Position numbers and translations under genes: made by a program. A stretch of DNA of 64,000 nucleotides, from positions 1-64,000 of IMG/VR virus record IMGVR_UViG_3300042922_000265; one strand, 5' to 3'. The notes under the pieces were generated by a model. The model worked only from the letters and a program-made list of their open reading frames with translations, was not told the origin of the DNA and ran no database searches. How positions within the stretch are numbered: position 1 is the stretch's first letter; each line of letters starts with the position of its first letter. The DNA comes from a virus. Shown one piece after another: positions 4,997 through 48,623 of this stretch.

Positions 4997-5018
4997 CCCT
5001 ATGTGGTAGATAAAGTCG

Positions 5019-5141
5019 CTATCGTTCTCCGACCTCATCCTCGTGGGGATTGAAGAAGAACTCCTCGGCAAACTCCTCGTCCGCCTGATCCTCCAGGTAG
5101 TCGTCGAAATCGCGGGCCAGGAAGTGCTGCGCGCCGTACAT
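5019..5141 (-). CDS. small acidic protein
   Basis: 40 residues. ATG overlaps the upstream stop (TGATG at 5143-5139). The sequence begins MYGAQHFLARDFDDYLED and is dominated by Asp, Glu and Phe (EEFAEEFFFNPHEDE). Translational coupling and the clean stop support it as a gene. Very acidic phage proteins of this size sometimes act as nucleic-acid mimics, but nothing here shows that. Confidence 0.5.
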   Translation of the reverse strand: MYGAQHFLARDFDDYLEDQADEEFAEEFFFNPHEDEVGER

Positions 5142-5776
5142 CAGACCAGCACCAGCTGGGCGGTCTCGCGCTTCTTGGCCTCGCGACGCTCCTTGGCCGC
5201 TGCCTTCTTGGCGGCCTCGAACGCGATCACGTCAGGGCGATCTGCCACGCGGGCCTTGGCTGCCTTGTAGCCTTCTTTGCCCAGGATGGACGGACCGCAG
5301 CTGGTGCCGAGGCCGATGTGTTTGCTGGTGGGGTCCTCCAGCTCGTGGCTGCAGTTCACGCAGTAGGCGTTGGCCACACCGTGGGCCGCGATGGCCTCGC
5401 CGGTCATCTTCATGTCGGCGAACAGGCCGGACATGGCACCGGGGACGTACTCCAGGCCACGCGCGGTGGTCAGCTTGGCATAGAAGCGCTGCCCGTCCTG
5501 GGTGCGCACAACCTTGAAGACCTGGCCCTGGTCGTTCTTGTAGAAGCCCTCGGCGCTGATGCGCGCACGCTGGACAACCTGCACGGGCAGGGTGGTCTGG
5601 GTGGGGCGCACCTTCTTGGCGGTGGCCTTGAGGGCGGAGATCAGCTCGGAGGCGCGGGCCTTGGTGATGCCTTCCTCAAGCTCCTCGGCGATGGAGTTGA
5701 TGCCAGCGAGGTCGATGAGACGCTCGGAGACGAGAGCTTCGATGTAGCGGATCTGGGGTGCGGTTGCGTTGCTCAT
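5141..5776 (-). CDS. DUF6011-like zinc-binding protein
   Basis: 211 residues. The motif YCVNCSHELEDPTS followed by GLGTSC (about residues 140-163) matches small phage proteins with the pattern YCxxCgreLtdpxSxxxGxGxxC (DUF6011), probably one zinc site. The N-terminus (TAPQIRYIEALVSERL) is helical and the C-terminus is Lys/Ala-rich. It is preceded by a strong leaderless promoter. Role unknown. Confidence 0.65.
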   Translation of the reverse strand: MSNATAPQIRYIEALVSERLIDLAGINSIAEELEEGITKARASELISALKATAKKVRPTQTTLPVQVVQRARISAEGFYKNDQGQVFKVVRTQDGQRFYAKLTTARGLEYVPGAMSGLFADMKMTGEAIAAHGVANAYCVNCSHELEDPTSKHIGLGTSCGPSILGKEGYKAAKARVADRPDVIAFEAAKKAAAKERREAKKRETAQLVLV

Positions 5777-6094: not shown

Positions 6095-7744
6095 TTAAAT
6101 CCGGCCAGCCGAGAAATTGCTGATGATCTGCGGCACCGCCGTGTCCATGCCGCTGACATCCAGCGACAGAGGATCGAACGGAGCCACCACCGAGGTTCCG
6201 GTGGAAGTCATCGCACACACGACCAGCCGCGCGTCCGGGTTGACGCGGTTGCGGTACAGCTCCATCACCTGGAAGGGATGGCCGTGACGACCCGCCCACG
6301 TCTCACCGTCGGTGAGGATCACGAACGTGTCGGCCCGGATGCCCTTGGCGATGGCCATCTGGATCGGCTGGGTGACGTCAGTGCCGCCGTTGACCTGCGA
6401 ACGCAGGTACTTGACGTTGTCGTCCAACCGGCGACGGGGCGAGATGTCCAGCGACCACGCACGGGTGTCGAACCCGATGTAGCCGACGTCAGGCTCCGAG
6501 GAACCCACCGCCATGGCCATCACCGCACACGCCTCCAGGCAGGTCAGTGGCATACCGCTGACGCGAGTGCCGCCACCCCACGAGGAGCCCATCGAACCCG
6601 AGCAGTCGATGCCCAGGATCGTGGTCTTACCCGCAGGCTCGATCGTGCCGAGCGAGGCGTAGAACGCATCGTCCAGCGCATCGGTGATCCGACCGACCGG
6701 GGTCCAGGTGCTCGATCCCCGCTCGGACTTGCCCGCCGCGTAGGTGCGCTGTGCCACCAGCAGCTGCATCGGGTGCACGCGGCCCCGCTTGAGGGCCTCG
6801 GCGTCGGTGAGCTGGTTGACCGCCTGGGCTGCCCAAGTGCCATCCCTGCCGTACACCCGCGTCAGACGCGGGAGCTGGCGGATCAGCGCCGTGATCGGCA
6901 TGCCCTTGTCCAGGAGTTCGTCCCAGATGGCAGGCTCGTTGATCCACTTGTCGGGGATCATCTCCCAGGTGACACCGTCGACCTTGAGCAGTTCGGTGAC
7001 CTGCGCGATGGTGTCGACCCGCTGCAGAGCCTCGTAGGCCAGCACGACCTCGGGCAGGGATGCCCGCAGTCGCTTGCCCGCGCGGTCCTTGGTGGTCCGA
7101 CCGGCCAGGTAGTTGTACAGCACCCGGTGGGCGTCGTTCTTGCCCGAAGGGTGGGCCATACGCAGGGCGTCGTTGTGTGCCCAGCCCTCACGCTGCCGGT
7201 ACTTCACCAGCTGGATGGCCAGCTGATCAGCGTCCTTGCCGTCGTACCACTCGCCAACAGCACGCCGGAAAGCGCGACCCCAACCACGGAACTGCTCGGC
7301 GTAGTTGAGGAACTTGAACAGCGAGGTGGCAGTCCGACAGACCTGCGGCAGAGCAGCCAGAGCTGCCTGGCGACCGGCGACGTCCGGGGACGCCGAGGCC
7401 ACTGCCAAAGCGAAGATCGCGGCGTCCTGCTTCGGTGCGCGACCGTTGGTCGACACGTCCACGATGGCCTTGACCAGGGTGAGAGGAGCCTGCTCAGCAG
7501 CCCGCAGCACGACGGCGGCGTTCTCCTTGGTGAGCTGGCGCTCGGAGGTGTAGTACGTACCGCCGTCGGTGCCCAGAGTCAGGAACCGGTGCAGCCGTGC
7601 TTCGTCTCCGATGCTGAAGACGTATCCACCCGCCGCATTCTTGACCTGATCCTTCACCGCAGGACGGCGCTGATCGGTCTTGGACGCAGGCACCGAACGG
7701 GGTGCGCGGGTGCGGATCGACGCGAGCGCGTCATTCTTGGCCAT
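6095..7744 (-). CDS. rsr: TROVE-domain Ro60 (Rsr) ribonucleoprotein
   Basis: 549 residues. The N-terminal two thirds is a TROVE HEAT-repeat ring, with YVFSIGDEARLHRFLTLG, a run through FLNYAEQFRGWGRAFRRAV, and LVKYRQREGWAHNDALR, the most conserved block. The C-terminal third is a VWA domain with an intact MIDAS, ILGIDCSGSMGSSW near residue 375, and later DTFVILTDGETWAG. Bacterial Ro60 binds Y RNAs and misfolded RNA and cooperates with PNPase or other nucleases in RNA decay. GAGGAGG lies 8 nt before the ATG. An RNA with a permuted tRNA-like module lies immediately upstream and a second structured region lies downstream. Ro homologues are known in Bxz1-like mycobacteriophages. Confidence 0.93.
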   Translation of the reverse strand: MAKNDALASIRTRAPRSVPASKTDQRRPAVKDQVKNAAGGYVFSIGDEARLHRFLTLGTDGGTYYTSERQLTKENAAVVLRAAEQAPLTLVKAIVDVSTNGRAPKQDAAIFALAVASASPDVAGRQAALAALPQVCRTATSLFKFLNYAEQFRGWGRAFRRAVGEWYDGKDADQLAIQLVKYRQREGWAHNDALRMAHPSGKNDAHRVLYNYLAGRTTKDRAGKRLRASLPEVVLAYEALQRVDTIAQVTELLKVDGVTWEMIPDKWINEPAIWDELLDKGMPITALIRQLPRLTRVYGRDGTWAAQAVNQLTDAEALKRGRVHPMQLLVAQRTYAAGKSERGSSTWTPVGRITDALDDAFYASLGTIEPAGKTTILGIDCSGSMGSSWGGGTRVSGMPLTCLEACAVMAMAVGSSEPDVGYIGFDTRAWSLDISPRRRLDDNVKYLRSQVNGGTDVTQPIQMAIAKGIRADTFVILTDGETWAGRHGHPFQVMELYRNRVNPDARLVVCAMTSTGTSVVAPFDPLSLDVSGMDTAVPQIISNFSAGRI

Positions 7745-7794
7745 GAGTGGCCTCCTCTTCGTTGTGAGTCCGTATGTGGGTGGGGGATGGACTA

Positions 7795-7942
7795 GGTGAT
7801 GCGGACATAGGGGTGCTGTCCGGGTTTTGTACGCGCTCTACCAGACTGAGCTACACCGGCATGTGGTGCCGGTGGAAGGAATCGAACCTCCGACCTCGCG
7901 CTCCTGATGCGATAACCGAATTAGCGATCGGCCCGCATCACC
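7795..7942 (-). ncRNA. YrlA-like Y RNA with permuted tRNA module (element E1)
   Basis: The ends GGTGATGCGG (7942-7933) and CCGCATCACC (7804-7795) are perfectly complementary. Inside, in minus-strand order: a CCGA/TCGG hairpin with GGTTATC; strand GCGCG (7901-7897); a T arm GGAGG-TTCGATT-CCTTC; acceptor strand CACCGGC (7874-7868); a 7-nt loop ACCACAT that includes ACCA; acceptor strand GCCGGTG (7860-7854); a canonical D arm with GCTC/GAGC; and CGCGT (7835-7831), which pairs with GCGCG. The 3' half therefore precedes the 5' half. A closed acceptor with ends joined to a long stem is the YrlA Y-RNA plan, and the Ro60 ATG is 51 nt downstream. Confidence 0.75.
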
Positions 7943-7947
7943 TTTCC

Positions 7948-7953
7948 TCTATA
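7948..7953 (-). promoter_or_regulatory. candidate -10 box for the Y-RNA/Ro60 transcript
   Basis: TATAGA ends 5-6 nt before the first base of the terminal stem of the Y-RNA candidate (7942), as expected if transcription starts at that G. The -35 region is weak (TTCTCA). Confidence 0.4.
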
Positions 7954-8062
7954 AAATTTAGCGCACGGTCATGAGAACGCTCTCCGGGTTGTTTCGGCAA
8001 ATGAAGGTAACCGAAGTGCTTGCGGCCCGTGCTTGATGATTACTTTACAGGTTCTGTAGGGG

Positions 8063-8512
8063 TTACGCAACCGCCTTGGTCCGGGTGTCACACCCGAGCC
8101 GCTTGAACACCACCGCAAGGTCCTCCGCCGTACGCGGCGAGCTACACAGGACGGTGATCGGACCGGAGCCATTGTAGGGCTCCACCCACCTGGCTTCCAC
8201 CGAAATAGCCGTACCGGAGTCGTAGGACTCCCGAACGGTATCCACCAAGACGTGCTCGTCCTTGCGCTCCTGAGCCTTGGCCTTCGCCTTGGCCGCGCTG
8301 GCGAAGTTGCCACCCAAGGTCCACACCGACTTGTCCTGGTACCAGTAGTCCCAGACCCGAGGGCGGTTCTTCCACGTGACGATCGCATAGTCGACCTCGG
8401 CGGTGATAATGGTGCGGATCTCGTCGACAGACGAGGTGGAGTTGTCTTCCGCCCGTGCGGCGGTGATCTCTGTTGCGATGGGACCGGTTGCGGTCTGCTT
8501 ATGCCATTCCAT
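8063..8512 (-). CDS. hypothetical protein
   Basis: 149 residues starting MEWHKQTATGPIATEI. Lys/Ala-rich middle (AAKAKAKAQERKDEH) and a beta-rich C-terminal half. Two overlapping features, CCCTGTAG and a TAGAAT box 7 nt before the ATG, suggest a leaderless transcript, and no ribosome site is visible. Family not recognised. Confidence 0.65.
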   Translation of the reverse strand: MEWHKQTATGPIATEITAARAEDNSTSSVDEIRTIITAEVDYAIVTWKNRPRVWDYWYQDKSVWTLGGNFASAAKAKAKAQERKDEHVLVDTVRESYDSGTAISVEARWVEPYNGSGPITVLCSSPRTAEDLAVVFKRLGCDTRTKAVA

Positions 8513-25039: not shown

Positions 25040-28000
25040 CTAATCCAGCCAGTCGAGTCTTGCTACGTCCACTAGGTTAGCCCCGTCGCCCTCAAGTTTC
25101 TGCAGTTCACACACCACGGGGGCGTCTACTTTGATCATCGTGCCGAGTTTGCTCCAACTATCGGCGAAGGACAGGAACTCAAAGCTCTCCCCGTTCCAGT
25201 CGACGGTGATGAAGGCCATCATCTTGCCGTTGCGCTGGCGGTGCTGGTGGATGCGCACCACCTTGCCACCGACGCAGAATCGCTCGCCCTTGCGGTAGTC
25301 CTCCATGTCCATCGGATGCGAGATGCACTCGCCCTCGATCATGGACACGTACTCACCCATCGGGTCGCGGGTGATGAAGGTGCCGACCAGGGTCTGCTCC
25401 AGGTCCAGGATGACCTCCGGGTCATCGAACTTGAACCGAGGGAAGGCGTCGGGGTTCTTGCGCCACTTCTCCCAGACGATCTCGTTGGTGTCTTCCACCG
25501 AGAGCGCGTTGCGCTTCTTCTCGGCGATCTCCATCCGGCAGCGATGGTAGTAGACCCGTTCCAGCAAGTCCTCGCGCGACTCGCCGGTCCAGTCGAACGC
25601 GCCGATCTTGACCAGGTTGTCGACGACGCCCTTTTTGCTGCCGCCGCCCTTCTTGGTCCGGTCCAGGTAGTCCTGCAGGCTCTCGTACGGACGGTTGGCC
25701 ACGATGTCGGGCACCACCGACGGTCCGACCCCGCCGATGTCGATCAGACCGTACCGAATGACGTTGTCGTCGGTCAGAGTGAAGCGCTCACCGGAGGTGT
25801 TGACATCCGGTGGCAGCACGGGCTGCTTGCGGCGGCGCAGCTCGCGCAGGAACACCAGAGCCTTCTTCTCGCCGTCCTTGACGTCGTCGCCGTAGACAGC
25901 CAGGCAGGCGGTCTCGAACTCCAGGAAGTAGTAGTGCTTGGTCCAGATCTCCCACACGGCCTGCATCGCGTAGCCCATGCCGTGGGCCTTGTTGAAGGCG
26001 TAGCTGGCCGAGGCCAGCATGGAAAGCCAGATCTGCTCGGCGAGCTTGCGGGTGCCGCCCTGGCGGGTGAACTCCGGGTTGGCCATGCAGCCGTCCAGGA
26101 ATTGGCCCTCGAAGCTCTGCATCAGCTCCAGCTTCTTCTTGCCGATCGCCTTGCGCAGCGTCTCGCCCTCGCCGGGAGTGAAGCCCGCCAGCAGCCGCGT
26201 GGCGGCCACCAGGTCCTCCTGGTAGACCAGGATGCCCATGGTGTGACCGGTGACCTGCTCCAGCAGCGGGTGGTCGTAGGTGACCTCCTCCTCGCCGTGG
26301 CGTCGCCGCATGTAGCGGTCCAGCAGGCCGGGCACCCGCAGCACACCAGGTCGGTTGATGGACACGAGGTCGGACAGGTCCTTGAGGCTGCGCGGCTTGA
26401 AGCGCATGGCCTGCTTGGTGCCCGAGGGGGTGTTGATCTGGAAGATACCGGCGGTGTGGCCGAGGTCGATCTGCTCCCAGATGGCGGGGTCGCTGTAGTG
26501 CTCGTCGTCCATGACGATGACCTCGCGGGCGTCCTCGGGGATGCCGATGCCGAACCCGTCGTAGTCGATCCACACACCGTGACGCTCGTAGATCATCACC
26601 CGCGCCTGGGCCAGGACGTCCAGCCCCTTGTTGGACAGGAAGTCCTTCTTGATGCCGCCCAGCCAGGCGACCTCCTCCATGTCGAACTGGGTGGCGATCG
26701 GGCTCTCTTCCTTGCCACCCTTGCGCCGGGTCGGCAGCAAGCCCAGGAAGGGGCTGGGCAGCGCGACGATACCGGCGGCGTGAACTCCAGCCTGACGGGT
26801 CAGGTCGGTCATGTCCTCCAGGTAGTCGAACAGCCCGGTGTCGGCGTACAGCTCCATGTAGGGCTGCAGCTCGCCGCCGATCAGCTCCAGGGTCTCGCGC
26901 CATGTCGGCGGAACGTAATCGGGGTTGACCTCGTAGTCGTTGTCGTCGGAGAAGTCGACCTTCTTGACGATCTTGGACATGGCCAGGCTGTCTTTGAAGT
27001 CGATGCCCAGAGCCTTGCAGAGATCCTGGATCGCCCGCGCGGGACCGCTCTTGGCCTTGGTTCCGATGGCCACCACGTGGTCCTCGCCGTAGCGCTTGCC
27101 CATGTAGCCGATCAGACCCTTGCGGTGGCTCTTCTGGAAGTCGACATCGATGTCCGGGAAGTCCGGGCGGTCCGGGTTGATGAACCGCTCGAACGACAGG
27201 TCGTACTTGATCGGGTCCAGGCTGGTGATGCCCAACAGGTAGTTGACCAGGGAACCACCACCGGAACCACGGCCCGGTCCGCAGATACACGGGGTCGGCG
27301 CGGCACCAGGGTTGATCCACTTCTGGTACTCACCGGTCCGGGCGGCCAACATGTAGTCGTTGACGATGTTGAAGTACCCGGCGAAGTTCTTGTCGACGAT
27401 CAGCTTCTGCTCGCGCTCCAGGCGCGCCCGGTAGACCTCTTCGTCGAGCCCCTTGGCGGTGATGAACCGCTTGAACCCTTCTTCGCAGGCGCGCCGGAAC
27501 GCAGCGGCGTCCTCAGCGTCGGTCTCATACAGCCGGGGCATACTGATGGTCGGCTTGATCTCGACATTGCATTGATCGGCGATCATCTTGGTGTTGCGGA
27601 TCGCCTCGGTAACCACCGAGGTGGGGATGCCGTGGAAGCCCATGTGCTCGAACAGCTCGTTGACGCTCATCATCCAGTCGGCGGCGTGGACGTCACCCTC
27701 GACCTGATCACCCTTGTTGCCGGTGTTGATCTTCCACACCAGGCGGTGCTGCTTCCACTGCTCCTCCCAGGCGTAATGGGAGTCGTTGACCACGACCAGT
27801 GGCACGCCGAACTCGTTCGCGAACTGGACCTTGGCCTGGTTCATCTTGGTGATCTTGGCGTTGATGCCCTTCTGCTTCTCGTCGAGCGGGACCCCGTCCT
27901 CGAAGAAACGGAAAGTGTGCAGCTCGGAGTAGAACCGCTCGCCGAAGATGTCCAGCAGGGTGAACCACTCCATGCGGGCGGCGTCGTAGTCATCGCGTTC

Positions 28001-45503: not shown

Positions 45504-45611
45504 AACACACGGGCATGGGAACGAGGCCGGAGAGGAGGGCTCGAACCTCCATGATTCCTGGTGAGGGAATTTTTAACCAAGTTAACCGACTACTCAATCG
45601 GCCCGTGCGTT
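45504..45611 (-). ncRNA. terminal-stem element E2 with tRNA-Val(CAC)-like core
   Basis: Ends AACGCACGGGC and GCCCGTGTGTT form 11 pairs (one G-U). Inside: the CCGA/TCGG hairpin and GGTTAAC, an anticodon-like arm ATTCC-CTCACCA-GGAAT (CAC), and a T arm GGAGG-TTCGAGC-CCTCC. An acceptor of normal form cannot be drawn unless GGCCG pairs with CGGCC. Belongs to the five-member E family, unlike E1/E4/E5 in not being clearly permuted. Confidence 0.5.
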
Positions 45612-45693: not shown

Positions 45694-45828
45694 GAATGGG
45701 CATTTAGCCGTTACCGGCAAGGGACTGGACTCGAACCAGCGACCTCCACCTTAAAGGGTGGCGCTCTACCAACTGAGCTACCCCGCAGAAGGTTGGTTGC
45801 GGGAGAACCGATAACTATCGGCCCATTC
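45694..45828 (-). ncRNA. terminal-stem element E3 enclosing a tRNA
   Basis: Ends GAATGGGC and GCCCATTC are perfectly complementary. A CCGATA/TATCGG hairpin follows the 5' strand. The element wraps the complete tRNA at 45716-45786. AAATGCCC at the 3' closing strand resembles the TAT/AAT-GCCC ends of E2 and E4. Confidence 0.45.
45716..45786 (-). tRNA. tRNA with 6-nt anticodon loop (Lys-like)
   Basis: 71 nt. Acceptor GCGGGGT/CCCTTGC (2 G-U, one mismatch), D stem GCTC/GAGC, AC stem CCACC/GGTGG with loop CTTTAA of only six bases, T arm GCTGG-TTCGAGT-CCAGT. If U33 is the second loop base the triplet is TTA, which would read UAA stop codons; otherwise it is a tRNA-Lys (TTT) that lost one base. Confidence 0.6.
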
Positions 45829-48414: not shown

Positions 48415-48418
48415 AGAG

Positions 48419-48491
48419 TGGAGATAATGGGAATTGAACCCACCACACCGATCTTGCAAGGATCAGTCGCCCCCAAGGAACATGTACCCCC
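48419..48491 (-). tRNA. tRNA-Ala(TGC)
   Basis: 73 nt. Acceptor GGGGGTA/TATCTCC (two G-U), AC stem TGATC/GATCG, loop CTTGCAA, T arm GTGGG-TTCAATT-CCCAT. D arm is weak. Confidence 0.75.
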
Positions 48492-48496
48492 ATTGT

Positions 48497-48623
48497 GATC
48501 TTGGATATTGCTTGAGGCCGGAACGCCCCGCCAGCACGGTTTCCCGTTGGGGCTGTCCAGACCATGGGTGGTCTGGACTGGAATCGAACCAGTGATAACC
48601 GACTACTCGGTCGACCCAAGATC
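48497..48623 (-). ncRNA. YrlA-like element E5 with permuted tRNA module
   Basis: Ends GATCTTGG and CCAAGATC are perfectly complementary. Inside: CCGA/TCGG hairpin with GGTTATC, then T arm ACTGG-TTCGATT-CCAGT, acceptor strand CCAGACC (48576-48570), loop ACCCAT, and strand GGTCTGG (48563-48557), the stem extending to 9 bp (GTCCAGACC with GGTCTGGAC). The downstream 5' part is not a normal D arm but ACGG-GAAA-CCGT within GCCCC/GGGGC. Confidence 0.6.

What the first reader, a model, noticed from the sequence alone, without database searches (positions are those of the whole stretch)
7795..7942. Permuted tRNA-like Y RNA immediately upstream of a phage Ro60
The RNA has perfectly complementary ends and, between them, T arm, closed acceptor hairpin (CACCGGC-ACCACAT-GCCGGTG), D arm, and GCGCG/CGCGT in the anticodon-stem position. 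YrlA Y RNAs are known as tRNA mimics tethering Ro60 to exoribonucleases, and this is that layout, 51 nt before a TROVE/VWA gene with an intact MIDAS. RNase P could cut at the GCCGGTG side, and an encoded ACCA lies in the loop. So the phage may encode a whole Ro-Y RNA machine. The Y-RNA identity is inferred from structure and position.
Basis: partly seen in the sequence, partly recalled or inferred. Interest (0 to 1): 0.9.

Follow-up and report, generated by a model that had tools for sequence, protein, structure and literature searches.

The report
Phage Y RNAs mimicking tRNAs
Just ahead of its gene for the RNA-binding protein Ro60, this mycobacteriophage-like virus encodes a genuine tRNA-mimicking Y RNA (a known kind), and it also hides at least four more Y RNAs inside its tRNA gene array, where annotation programs have been mistaking relatives of three of them for tRNAs.

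Summary
Minus-strand RNA 7942-7795 is a YrlA-class Y RNA directly upstream of an intact Ro60 gene (6095-7744). A covariance model built without this phage or its nearest relatives scores it 85 bits, E 1e-20. Stems keep pairing across 27 relatives: 19 of 28 consensus pairs carry two-sided changes. A second helix, matching the Ro-binding part of Y RNAs, is supported. The phage Ro is 315 bits to Xenopus Ro60.

As a kind this is not new: papers citing Chen et al. 2014 and Sim & Wolin 2018 say mycobacteriophages and other phages carry Y RNAs. "A whole Ro-Y machine" is only partly right: no PNPase, RNase R, RtcB or Rnl2-type ligase domain was found in the phage, so any nuclease partner must be the host's.

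Going further, I find five more Y RNAs. One lacks tRNA parts (7963-8032). Four lie in the tRNA array; three sit 1-6 nt from a tRNA on both sides. One carries all four tRNA arms, permuted differently. They are conserved in Myrna and Phabba; three in Myrna are annotated as tRNAs. That array-embedded, diversified set is the new part. Transcription and Ro binding are untested.

The parts
7795..7942 (-). Y2: the YrlA-class Y RNA of the finding (outer Ro-binding stem + permuted tRNA-like domain)
   Evidence: R1 85 bits E 1.2e-20; Rfam YrlA 36.8 bits; compensatory changes in relatives
7933..7942 (-). Y2 outer stem 5' strand GGTGATGCGG, pairs with 7795-7804
   Evidence: sequence; stem columns keep pairing with two-sided changes in up to 15 of 27 relatives
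7795..7804 (-). Y2 outer stem 3' strand CCGCATCACC
   Evidence: as above
7911..7933 (-). Ro-site motif GGCCGATCGCTAATTCGGTTATC; TTCGG (7920-7916) pairs with CCGGA (7823-7819) to form the inner helix
   Evidence: motif: 3 in the 167 kb genome, all on the minus strand, none in the reversed-pattern control, 0.04 expected in the window; inner helix beats swapped partners in 1000 of 1000 trials over 27 sequences (that automatic scan did not itself pick the stated partner for this one sequence)
7875..7891 (-). Y2 T arm
   Evidence: Rfam and R1 alignments
7854..7874 (-). Y2 closed acceptor hairpin CACCGGC-ACCACAT-GCCGGTG, A-CCA at discriminator/CCA position
7835..7851 (-). Y2 D arm
7963..8032 (-). 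Y1: short Y RNA without tRNA parts, directly upstream of Y2; outer stem GCACGG/CCGTGC
   Evidence: motif; free fold gives outer stem, internal loop and inner helix; syntenic short Y RNA in Phabba, Myrna and Nappy with changed but paired outer stems
6095..7744 (-). Ro60/TROVE-vWA protein, 549 aa, MIDAS intact
   Evidence: Pfam TROVE 8e-49, vWA_Ro60 1e-40; 315 bits to Xenopus Ro60 1yvp, 310 bits to D. radiodurans Rsr 2nvo
45504..45611 (-). Y3: Y RNA filling the gap tRNA-Arg(acg) to tRNA-Val(gac); carries an anticodon-arm-like hairpin and a T arm
   Evidence: outer stem about 10 bp and inner helix; syntenic in Phabba and Myrna; R1 26.2 bits, not decisive alone
45694..45828 (-). Y4: Y RNA with a full four-arm tRNA-like domain in the order acceptor hairpin, D, anticodon, T; contains ARAGORN 'tRNA-???' 45716-45786
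   Evidence: free fold gives outer stem, inner helix and all four arms; syntenic in Phabba and Myrna, same acceptor partner kept; R1 27.5 bits
47037..47175 (-). Y5: second canonical YrlA, filling the gap tRNA-Lys(ctt) to tRNA-Glu(ttc)
   Evidence: R1 86 bits E 6e-21; Rfam YrlA 33.5 bits; orthologues 106 bits in Phabba and Myrna
48497..48623 (-). Y6: Y RNA 3 nt after tRNA-Met; T arm and acceptor hairpin
   Evidence: R1 29.5 bits; outer stem GATCTTGG/CCAAGATC replaced by other paired sequences in Phabba, Myrna and Nappy at the same array position

Best explanation
The RNA is a phage YrlA-class Y RNA, transcribed with a second, plain Y RNA and the Ro60 gene. Its paired ends and the CCGA/GGUUAUC region form the Ro-binding stem, so the phage Ro ring holds it there. 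Its outward domain imitates the T, acceptor and D arms of a tRNA and is the docking surface for a tRNA- or structured-RNA-binding host protein, most likely the host exoribonuclease PNPase, as in the RYPER complex of Deinococcus. The result would be a phage-directed Ro ring that feeds or shields structured RNA (damaged tRNA, rRNA, phage tRNA precursors) at a host nuclease. The array Y RNAs are probably cut free by tRNA 5' and 3' processing of their neighbours and give Ro interchangeable tRNA-like adaptors. Shown here: the RNA family, its architecture, linkage to Ro, conservation, and the absence of the tested phage nuclease and ligase domains. Inferred: transcription, Ro binding, processing by tRNA enzymes, PNPase docking, and the substrate. 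My confidence that it is a YrlA-class Y RNA is about 0.95; that it tethers Ro to a host exonuclease, about 0.5.
For: R1, trained without Myrnavirus sequences: 85 bits, E 1e-20. 19 of 28 consensus pairs have two-sided changes. Inner Ro-site helix: own partner beats swapped partners, 0 of 1000. Motif: 3 in 167 kb, control 0. Of 101 R1 hits of at least 50 bits in 80 IMG/VR TROVE loci, 96 lie within 1.5 kb upstream of TROVE; 51 of 77 testable loci have one. Actinobacterial chromosomal Ro genes have the same RNA at the same place, up to 120 bits. Ro protein 315 bits to Xenopus Ro60. YrlA basal stem binds Rsr and the tRNA-like domain binds PNPase per PMC8394870. Array Y3, Y4 and Y5 abut tRNAs by 1-6 nt on both sides.
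Against: No expression or binding data. Rfam's curated YrlA cut-off (69 bits) is not reached (36.8), and below that cut-off the Rfam model also rings in E. coli and B. subtilis. The unconstrained fold does not form the D arm. PNPase docking is known to me only for Deinococcus; mycobacterial PNPase was not tested. Several Y RNAs here (Y1, Y3) lack the D/acceptor face that YrlA uses. R1 scores of Y3, Y4 and Y6 (26-30 bits) overlap those of ordinary tRNA pairs (up to 31 bits); their case rests on stems, motif and synteny.
Confidence: 0.72

Rival explanations
1. tRNA decoy or nuclease competitor: the tRNA-like Y RNAs, held on Ro, occupy or inhibit host anticodon nucleases (VapC-type and others) or tRNA-modifying enzymes during infection, rather than tethering an exonuclease.
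For: Hughes et al. (PMC7790460) propose that the YrlA tRNA-like domain could competitively inhibit an anticodon nuclease. C1 mycobacteriophage tRNAs were studied as insensitive to host tRNases such as VapC (PMC10264068). Y3 and Y4 carry anticodon-arm-like hairpins, and the Y RNAs sit among about 29 tRNAs.
Against: Canonical Y2 and Y5 have no anticodon arm, the usual target; nothing in sequence shows inhibition; a decoy would not need a Ro-binding stem.
Confidence: 0.15
2. Cis-acting 5' leader: Y1 and Y2 are part of the Ro mRNA leader and let Ro repress or stabilise its own message.
For: Y2 ends 50 nt before the Ro start and Y1-Y2 fill the intergenic gap; this arrangement recurs upstream of Ro in most relatives.
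Against: The same RNAs occur 38-41 kb away between tRNA genes (Y3-Y6) and, in some phages, beyond another gene (Pumpernickel, A3Wally) or downstream of TROVE (L087, L089), where no Ro leader exists.
Confidence: 0.08
3. Two degenerate neighbouring tRNA genes (a 3' half followed by a 5' half) that look like a YrlA by chance.
For: A 3' half-tRNA followed by a 5' half is what any tandem tRNA pair shows, and the Rfam YrlA model rings below cut-off in genomes such as E. coli and B. subtilis.
Against: The outer stem, acceptor hairpin and Ro-site helix covary in relatives; ARAGORN calls no tRNA here; the Y2-like RNA is conserved upstream of Ro in phages and bacteria.
Confidence: 0.02
4. A functional circularly permuted tRNA gene matured by RNase P and ligation, in which the Ro stem is only a precursor feature.
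For: T-acceptor-D order, 7-bp acceptor stem, A-CCA in place in Myrnavirus copies; Y4 even has all four arms.
Against: Y2 has no anticodon arm; no Rnl2-type ligase or RtcB domain in the phage; the CCA is missing in most relatives; Y4's anticodon loop is 6 nt in window and Myrna and 7 nt in Phabba.
Confidence: 0.03

Closest known systems
YrlA bacterial Y RNA (Rfam RF02553; Salmonella, Deinococcus and others, as summarised in PMC8394870)
   Same: Size, paired ends, T arm then closed acceptor hairpin then D arm, linkage to Ro60/Rsr
   Different: Scores only 36.8 bits on the Rfam model (actinobacterial chromosomal relatives score 36-45); Myrnavirus copies keep A-CCA in the acceptor loop; no RtcB in the phage
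Ro-linked Y RNAs of mycobacteriophages (Chen et al. 2014, not readable here; cited in PMC12282133 and, via Sim & Wolin 2018, PMC7765460)
   Same: Phage Ro gene with Y RNA genes nearby
   Different: I could not read the original, so cannot say whether this group, or the tRNA-array Y RNAs, are listed there
RYPER (Rsr-Y RNA-PNPase) of Deinococcus radiodurans
   Same: A Ro ring plus a Y RNA with a tRNA-like outer domain is present
   Different: No phage PNPase; a host enzyme is required; complex not shown
Vertebrate Y RNAs bound by Ro60
   Same: From memory of Y1: outer stem, CCGA internal loop, inner helix ending in GUUAUC; phage motif CCGA..GGUUAUC looks alike
   Different: Vertebrate Y RNAs have no tRNA-like domain; the resemblance was not tested by a search

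Membership tests
YrlA-class bacterial Y RNA | Encoded beside a Ro60/Rsr gene | tested here: met
   50 nt upstream, same strand, of a TROVE + vWA_Ro60 gene
YrlA-class bacterial Y RNA | 90-150 nt with 5' and 3' ends forming a long basal stem | tested here: met
   148 nt, 10-12 bp basal stem, two-sided changes in relatives
YrlA-class bacterial Y RNA | tRNA-like domain with T, acceptor and D arms | tested here: met
   Rfam and R1 alignments; 7-bp acceptor stem with two-sided changes
YrlA-class bacterial Y RNA | Conserved Ro-binding sequence in the basal stem | tested here: met
   Motif near-invariant in 27 sequences; inner helix supported 0/1000. That it is the Ro site is inferred
Rfam RF02553 YrlA | Score at or above the gathering cut-off of 69 bits | tested here: not met
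   36.8 bits; Ro-linked actinobacterial YrlAs also fail, 36-45 bits, so the cut-off excludes the lineage; I do not claim a curated Rfam assignment
YrlA-class bacterial Y RNA | Bound by Ro60 in the cell; modified by TruB/DusA | not testable with these tools
   needs pull-down and RNA analysis
RYPER (Ro-Y RNA-PNPase) | Y RNA tethers Ro to PNPase | not testable with these tools
   RNase_PH absent from the phage; host PNPase interaction needs an experiment
Ro60/TROVE protein | TROVE ring domain plus vWA domain with MIDAS | tested here: met
Permuted tRNA gene | All four arms including a decoding anticodon | tested here: not met
   Y2 lacks an anticodon arm; Y4 has all arms but a variable 6-7 nt loop

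The most novel reading that the evidence does not exclude
Large actinobacteriophages run a mixed array of tRNAs and Y RNAs: Y RNAs lie between tRNAs with almost no spacer, are freed by tRNA-processing enzymes, and present Ro60 with differently permuted tRNA mimics (none; anticodon+T; T+acceptor+D; all four arms). Ro would thus carry a set of tRNA-like adaptors for host nucleases or anti-phage tRNases, and some annotated phage tRNAs are not tRNAs.
Probability: 0.5. Interest if true: 0.75.

Novelty: new variant of a known kind. Interest (0 to 1): 0.58.

Why it matters
Y2 alone adds a well-supported member to a known class. The wider set matters more: it ties phage Ro60, whose role is unknown, to phage tRNA arrays. 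It predicts that Y RNAs are matured by RNase P and tRNA 3' processing, and it offers several natural tRNA-mimic designs for the same Ro ring. It also corrects annotation: in Myrna, Phabba and Boopy several 'tRNAs' are Y RNAs, which affects counts of phage tRNAs used in work on codon supply and tRNase evasion. Cluster C phages grow on the laboratory host M. smegmatis mc2 155, so the idea can be tested directly.

Tried and rejected
(1) Relying on Rfam YrlA: below gathering, and below cut-off it rings in genomes such as E. coli and B. subtilis, so I built a lineage model. (2) Consensus promoter and terminator scan of 7700-8200: nothing. By eye, TTGCGT-N17-TAAAGT lies upstream of Y1 and a matching TTGCGA-N17-TAAAGT in Phabba; not tested. 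(3) The anticodon-position helix: first test mis-set the D-arm end (411/1000); corrected test gives modest support (9/1000). (4) A stem-motif descriptor alone is not specific: shuffled 64-kb sequences give 0-4 hits each and one hit (27787-27992) is spurious, so conservation was required. (5) Two of my scripts failed: one search stopped before the constrained fold of Y2, and one search printed nothing; the constrained energy is not reported. (7) Tandem tRNA halves and functional permuted tRNA were considered and rejected (see rivals). (8) Chen et al. 2014 is not in the library, so priority for the tRNA-array Y RNAs is unchecked.

Full report
WHERE IT IS. The window is part of a 167,373-base IMG/VR phage record with a tmRNA and about 29 tRNA calls. 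Its closest named relatives by Ro protein are Myrnavirus mycobacteriophages: Phabba 78.6% identical, and Myrna 80% in the alignment; C1-type phages are about 51%.

THE OBSERVATION. On the minus strand, 7942-7795 has perfectly complementary ends and, between them, T arm, closed acceptor hairpin and D arm in that order, ending 50 nt before the start codon of a 549-aa TROVE/vWA protein. The protein matches Pfam TROVE (8e-49) and vWA_Ro60 (1e-40), Xenopus Ro60 (315 bits) and Deinococcus Rsr (310 bits), and its MIDAS residues are invariant among 11 phage homologues.

IS IT A YrlA RNA? Rfam YrlA matches the core (7898-7832) with 36.8 bits, below the curated 69. This alone is weak, since the Rfam model also rings below cut-off in E. 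coli and B. subtilis. Ro-linked RNAs of Gordonia, Nocardia, Cellulomonas and Mycolicibacterium chromosomes also score only 36-45 on Rfam. I therefore collected Y RNA units upstream of TROVE from phages and IMG/VR contigs. RNAalifold on 27 of them found 28 pairs, 19 with changes on both sides, up to 15 of 27 sequences for outer-stem pairs and 14 of 27 for acceptor pairs. A model (R1) from 22 sequences, none from the window, Myrna or Phabba, scores the RNA 85 bits, E 1.2e-20.

RO SITE. Near the 5' end all units share a CCGA..GGUUAUC-type motif. In the 167-kb genome the strict pattern occurs three times, all on the minus strand, with zero in the reversed-pattern control. RNAalifold draws a small CCGA/UCGG hairpin there, whose pairs hardly vary. 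The alternative, an inner helix pairing NNNCGG with CCGNNN near the 3' end, scores better with a sequence's own partner than with swapped partners in all 1000 trials. For the window RNA that automatic scan picked another site; the partner I give (TTCGG 7920-7916 with CCGGA 7823-7819) is read by eye. The outer stem, internal loop, inner helix and GUUAUC arrangement resembles vertebrate Y RNAs as I remember them (not tested).

DISTRIBUTION. Across 80 IMG/VR TROVE loci, 101 R1 hits reach 50 bits; 96 lie within 1.5 kb upstream of TROVE, 2 further upstream and 3 downstream; 51 of 77 loci with enough upstream sequence have one. Some of these loci also supplied the model's training sequences. Chromosomal actinobacterial Ro genes, none of them in the training set, have the same RNA in the same place (up to 120 bits).

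MORE Y RNAs IN THIS PHAGE. Immediately upstream is Y1 (8032-7963), a short Y RNA without tRNA parts, syntenic with one in Phabba, Myrna and Nappy. Four more lie in the tRNA array. Y5 (47175-47037) is a canonical YrlA of 86 bits that fills the gap between tRNA-Lys and tRNA-Glu. Y3 (45611-45504) fills the gap between tRNA-Arg and tRNA-Val and carries an anticodon-arm-like hairpin plus a T arm. Y4 (45828-45694) lies between tRNA-Ile and tRNA-Arg and contains the odd ARAGORN call 'tRNA-???'. Its free fold has outer stem, inner helix and acceptor, D, anticodon and T arms in that order, with N-CCA after the upstream acceptor strand. Its downstream acceptor partner is weaker and not kept in Myrna, while the upstream one is kept in all three phages. 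Y6 (48623-48497) follows tRNA-Met by 3 nt. By score alone Y3, Y4 and Y6 (26-30 bits) are not separable from ordinary tRNA pairs (up to 31 bits). They are accepted on outer stem, inner helix and motif, synteny in Phabba and Myrna and, for Y6, four different but paired outer stems at the same array position in window, Phabba, Myrna and Nappy; Phabba's stem needs a one-base bulge. The Nappy copy of Y6 is present at 95-100% identity in 190 phage records and unannotated in every record listed. Spacers to the neighbouring tRNAs are 1-6 nt on both sides for Y3, Y4 and Y5. In Myrna the orthologues of Y3, Y4 and Y5 are annotated as tRNA-Met, 'tRNA-OTHER' and tRNA-Asp; in Phabba Y4 is tRNA-Ser. In Gordonia phage Boopy, two annotated tRNAs (Ile 160, Leu 158) are Y RNAs lying between true tRNAs.

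MECHANISM. Published work, read here through citing papers, gives YrlA a basal stem that binds Rsr and a tRNA-like domain that binds PNPase, directing it to structured RNA (PMC8394870). This phage has Ro and Y RNAs but no match for RNase_PH, RNB, RtcB or RNA_ligase domains. The most likely role is therefore a phage Ro ring that recruits a host exonuclease through the tRNA-like face. Alternatives with literature support are competition with anticodon nucleases (PMC7790460; compare PMC10264068). Array Y RNAs have no room for promoters of their own, so I infer release by processing of the flanking tRNAs. None of transcription, binding or processing has been shown.

WHAT IS KNOWN. PMC12282133 states that Y RNAs were identified bioinformatically in mycobacteriophages, citing Chen et al. 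2014, and discusses abundant candidate Y RNAs near an Rsr-like gene in a Listeria phage. PMC7765460 says several phages have YrlA, citing Sim & Wolin 2018. PMC8190616 lists one YrlA in a Mycolicibacterium prophage. I could not read Chen et al. 2014. I found no paper in the held library on Y RNAs within phage tRNA arrays, which is weak evidence of absence.

VERDICT. Y2 by itself is a new member of a known kind. The six-member set with array-embedded and differently permuted Y RNAs is a new variant.

Noticed in passing
L098 4238-4347, 4022-4154, 4504-4638 (Myrna gp163, gp161, gp166); L097 4012-4145 (Phabba tRNA-Ser); L008 4540-4669, 4745-4878 (Boopy 160, 158): Genes annotated as tRNAs (Met, OTHER, Asp, Ser, Ile, Leu) are parts of Y RNAs with a Ro-site motif and outer stem.
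   Followed up: yes
window 45694-45828 and orthologues: A Y RNA with a complete four-arm tRNA-like domain, broken between T arm and acceptor instead of at the anticodon; anticodon loop 6 nt in window and Myrna, 7 nt in Phabba.
   Followed up: partly
window 7867-7861 (Y2 loop); Phabba and Myrna Y2; Phabba Y6; window Y4: A-CCA (or N-CCA) follows the acceptor 3' strand inside the closed loop of several Myrnavirus Y RNAs, though the neighbouring tRNA genes do not appear to encode CCA; reason unknown.
   Followed up: partly
L219 3894-4019 and 4883-5001 (Nappy): C1 phages also have Y-like RNAs in the tRNA array (after tRNA-Met and after tRNA-Val); the first is found in 190 records and unannotated in those listed.
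   Followed up: partly
upstream of Ro in several C1 records: Small 'hypothetical protein' genes are annotated over the Y RNA region in several of the listed records; probably not real genes.
   Followed up: no
W07 104208-104600 (A3Wally), W08 102215-102351 (Pumpernickel): In Microbacterium phages the best YrlA hits lie about 2.5 kb upstream of Ro, beyond the endolysin gene.
   Followed up: no
L087 and L089 around 5000-5560: Y RNAs lie downstream of TROVE instead of upstream.
   Followed up: no
window 8030-8062 (minus strand) and L003 about 2660-2700: TTGCG(T/A)-N17-TAAAGT just upstream of Y1, also in Phabba; possible promoter, not found by the consensus scan.
   Followed up: no
window 48418-48491: A tRNA-Ala-like sequence that ARAGORN does not call, where Phabba and Myrna have an annotated tRNA-Ala.
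   Followed up: no
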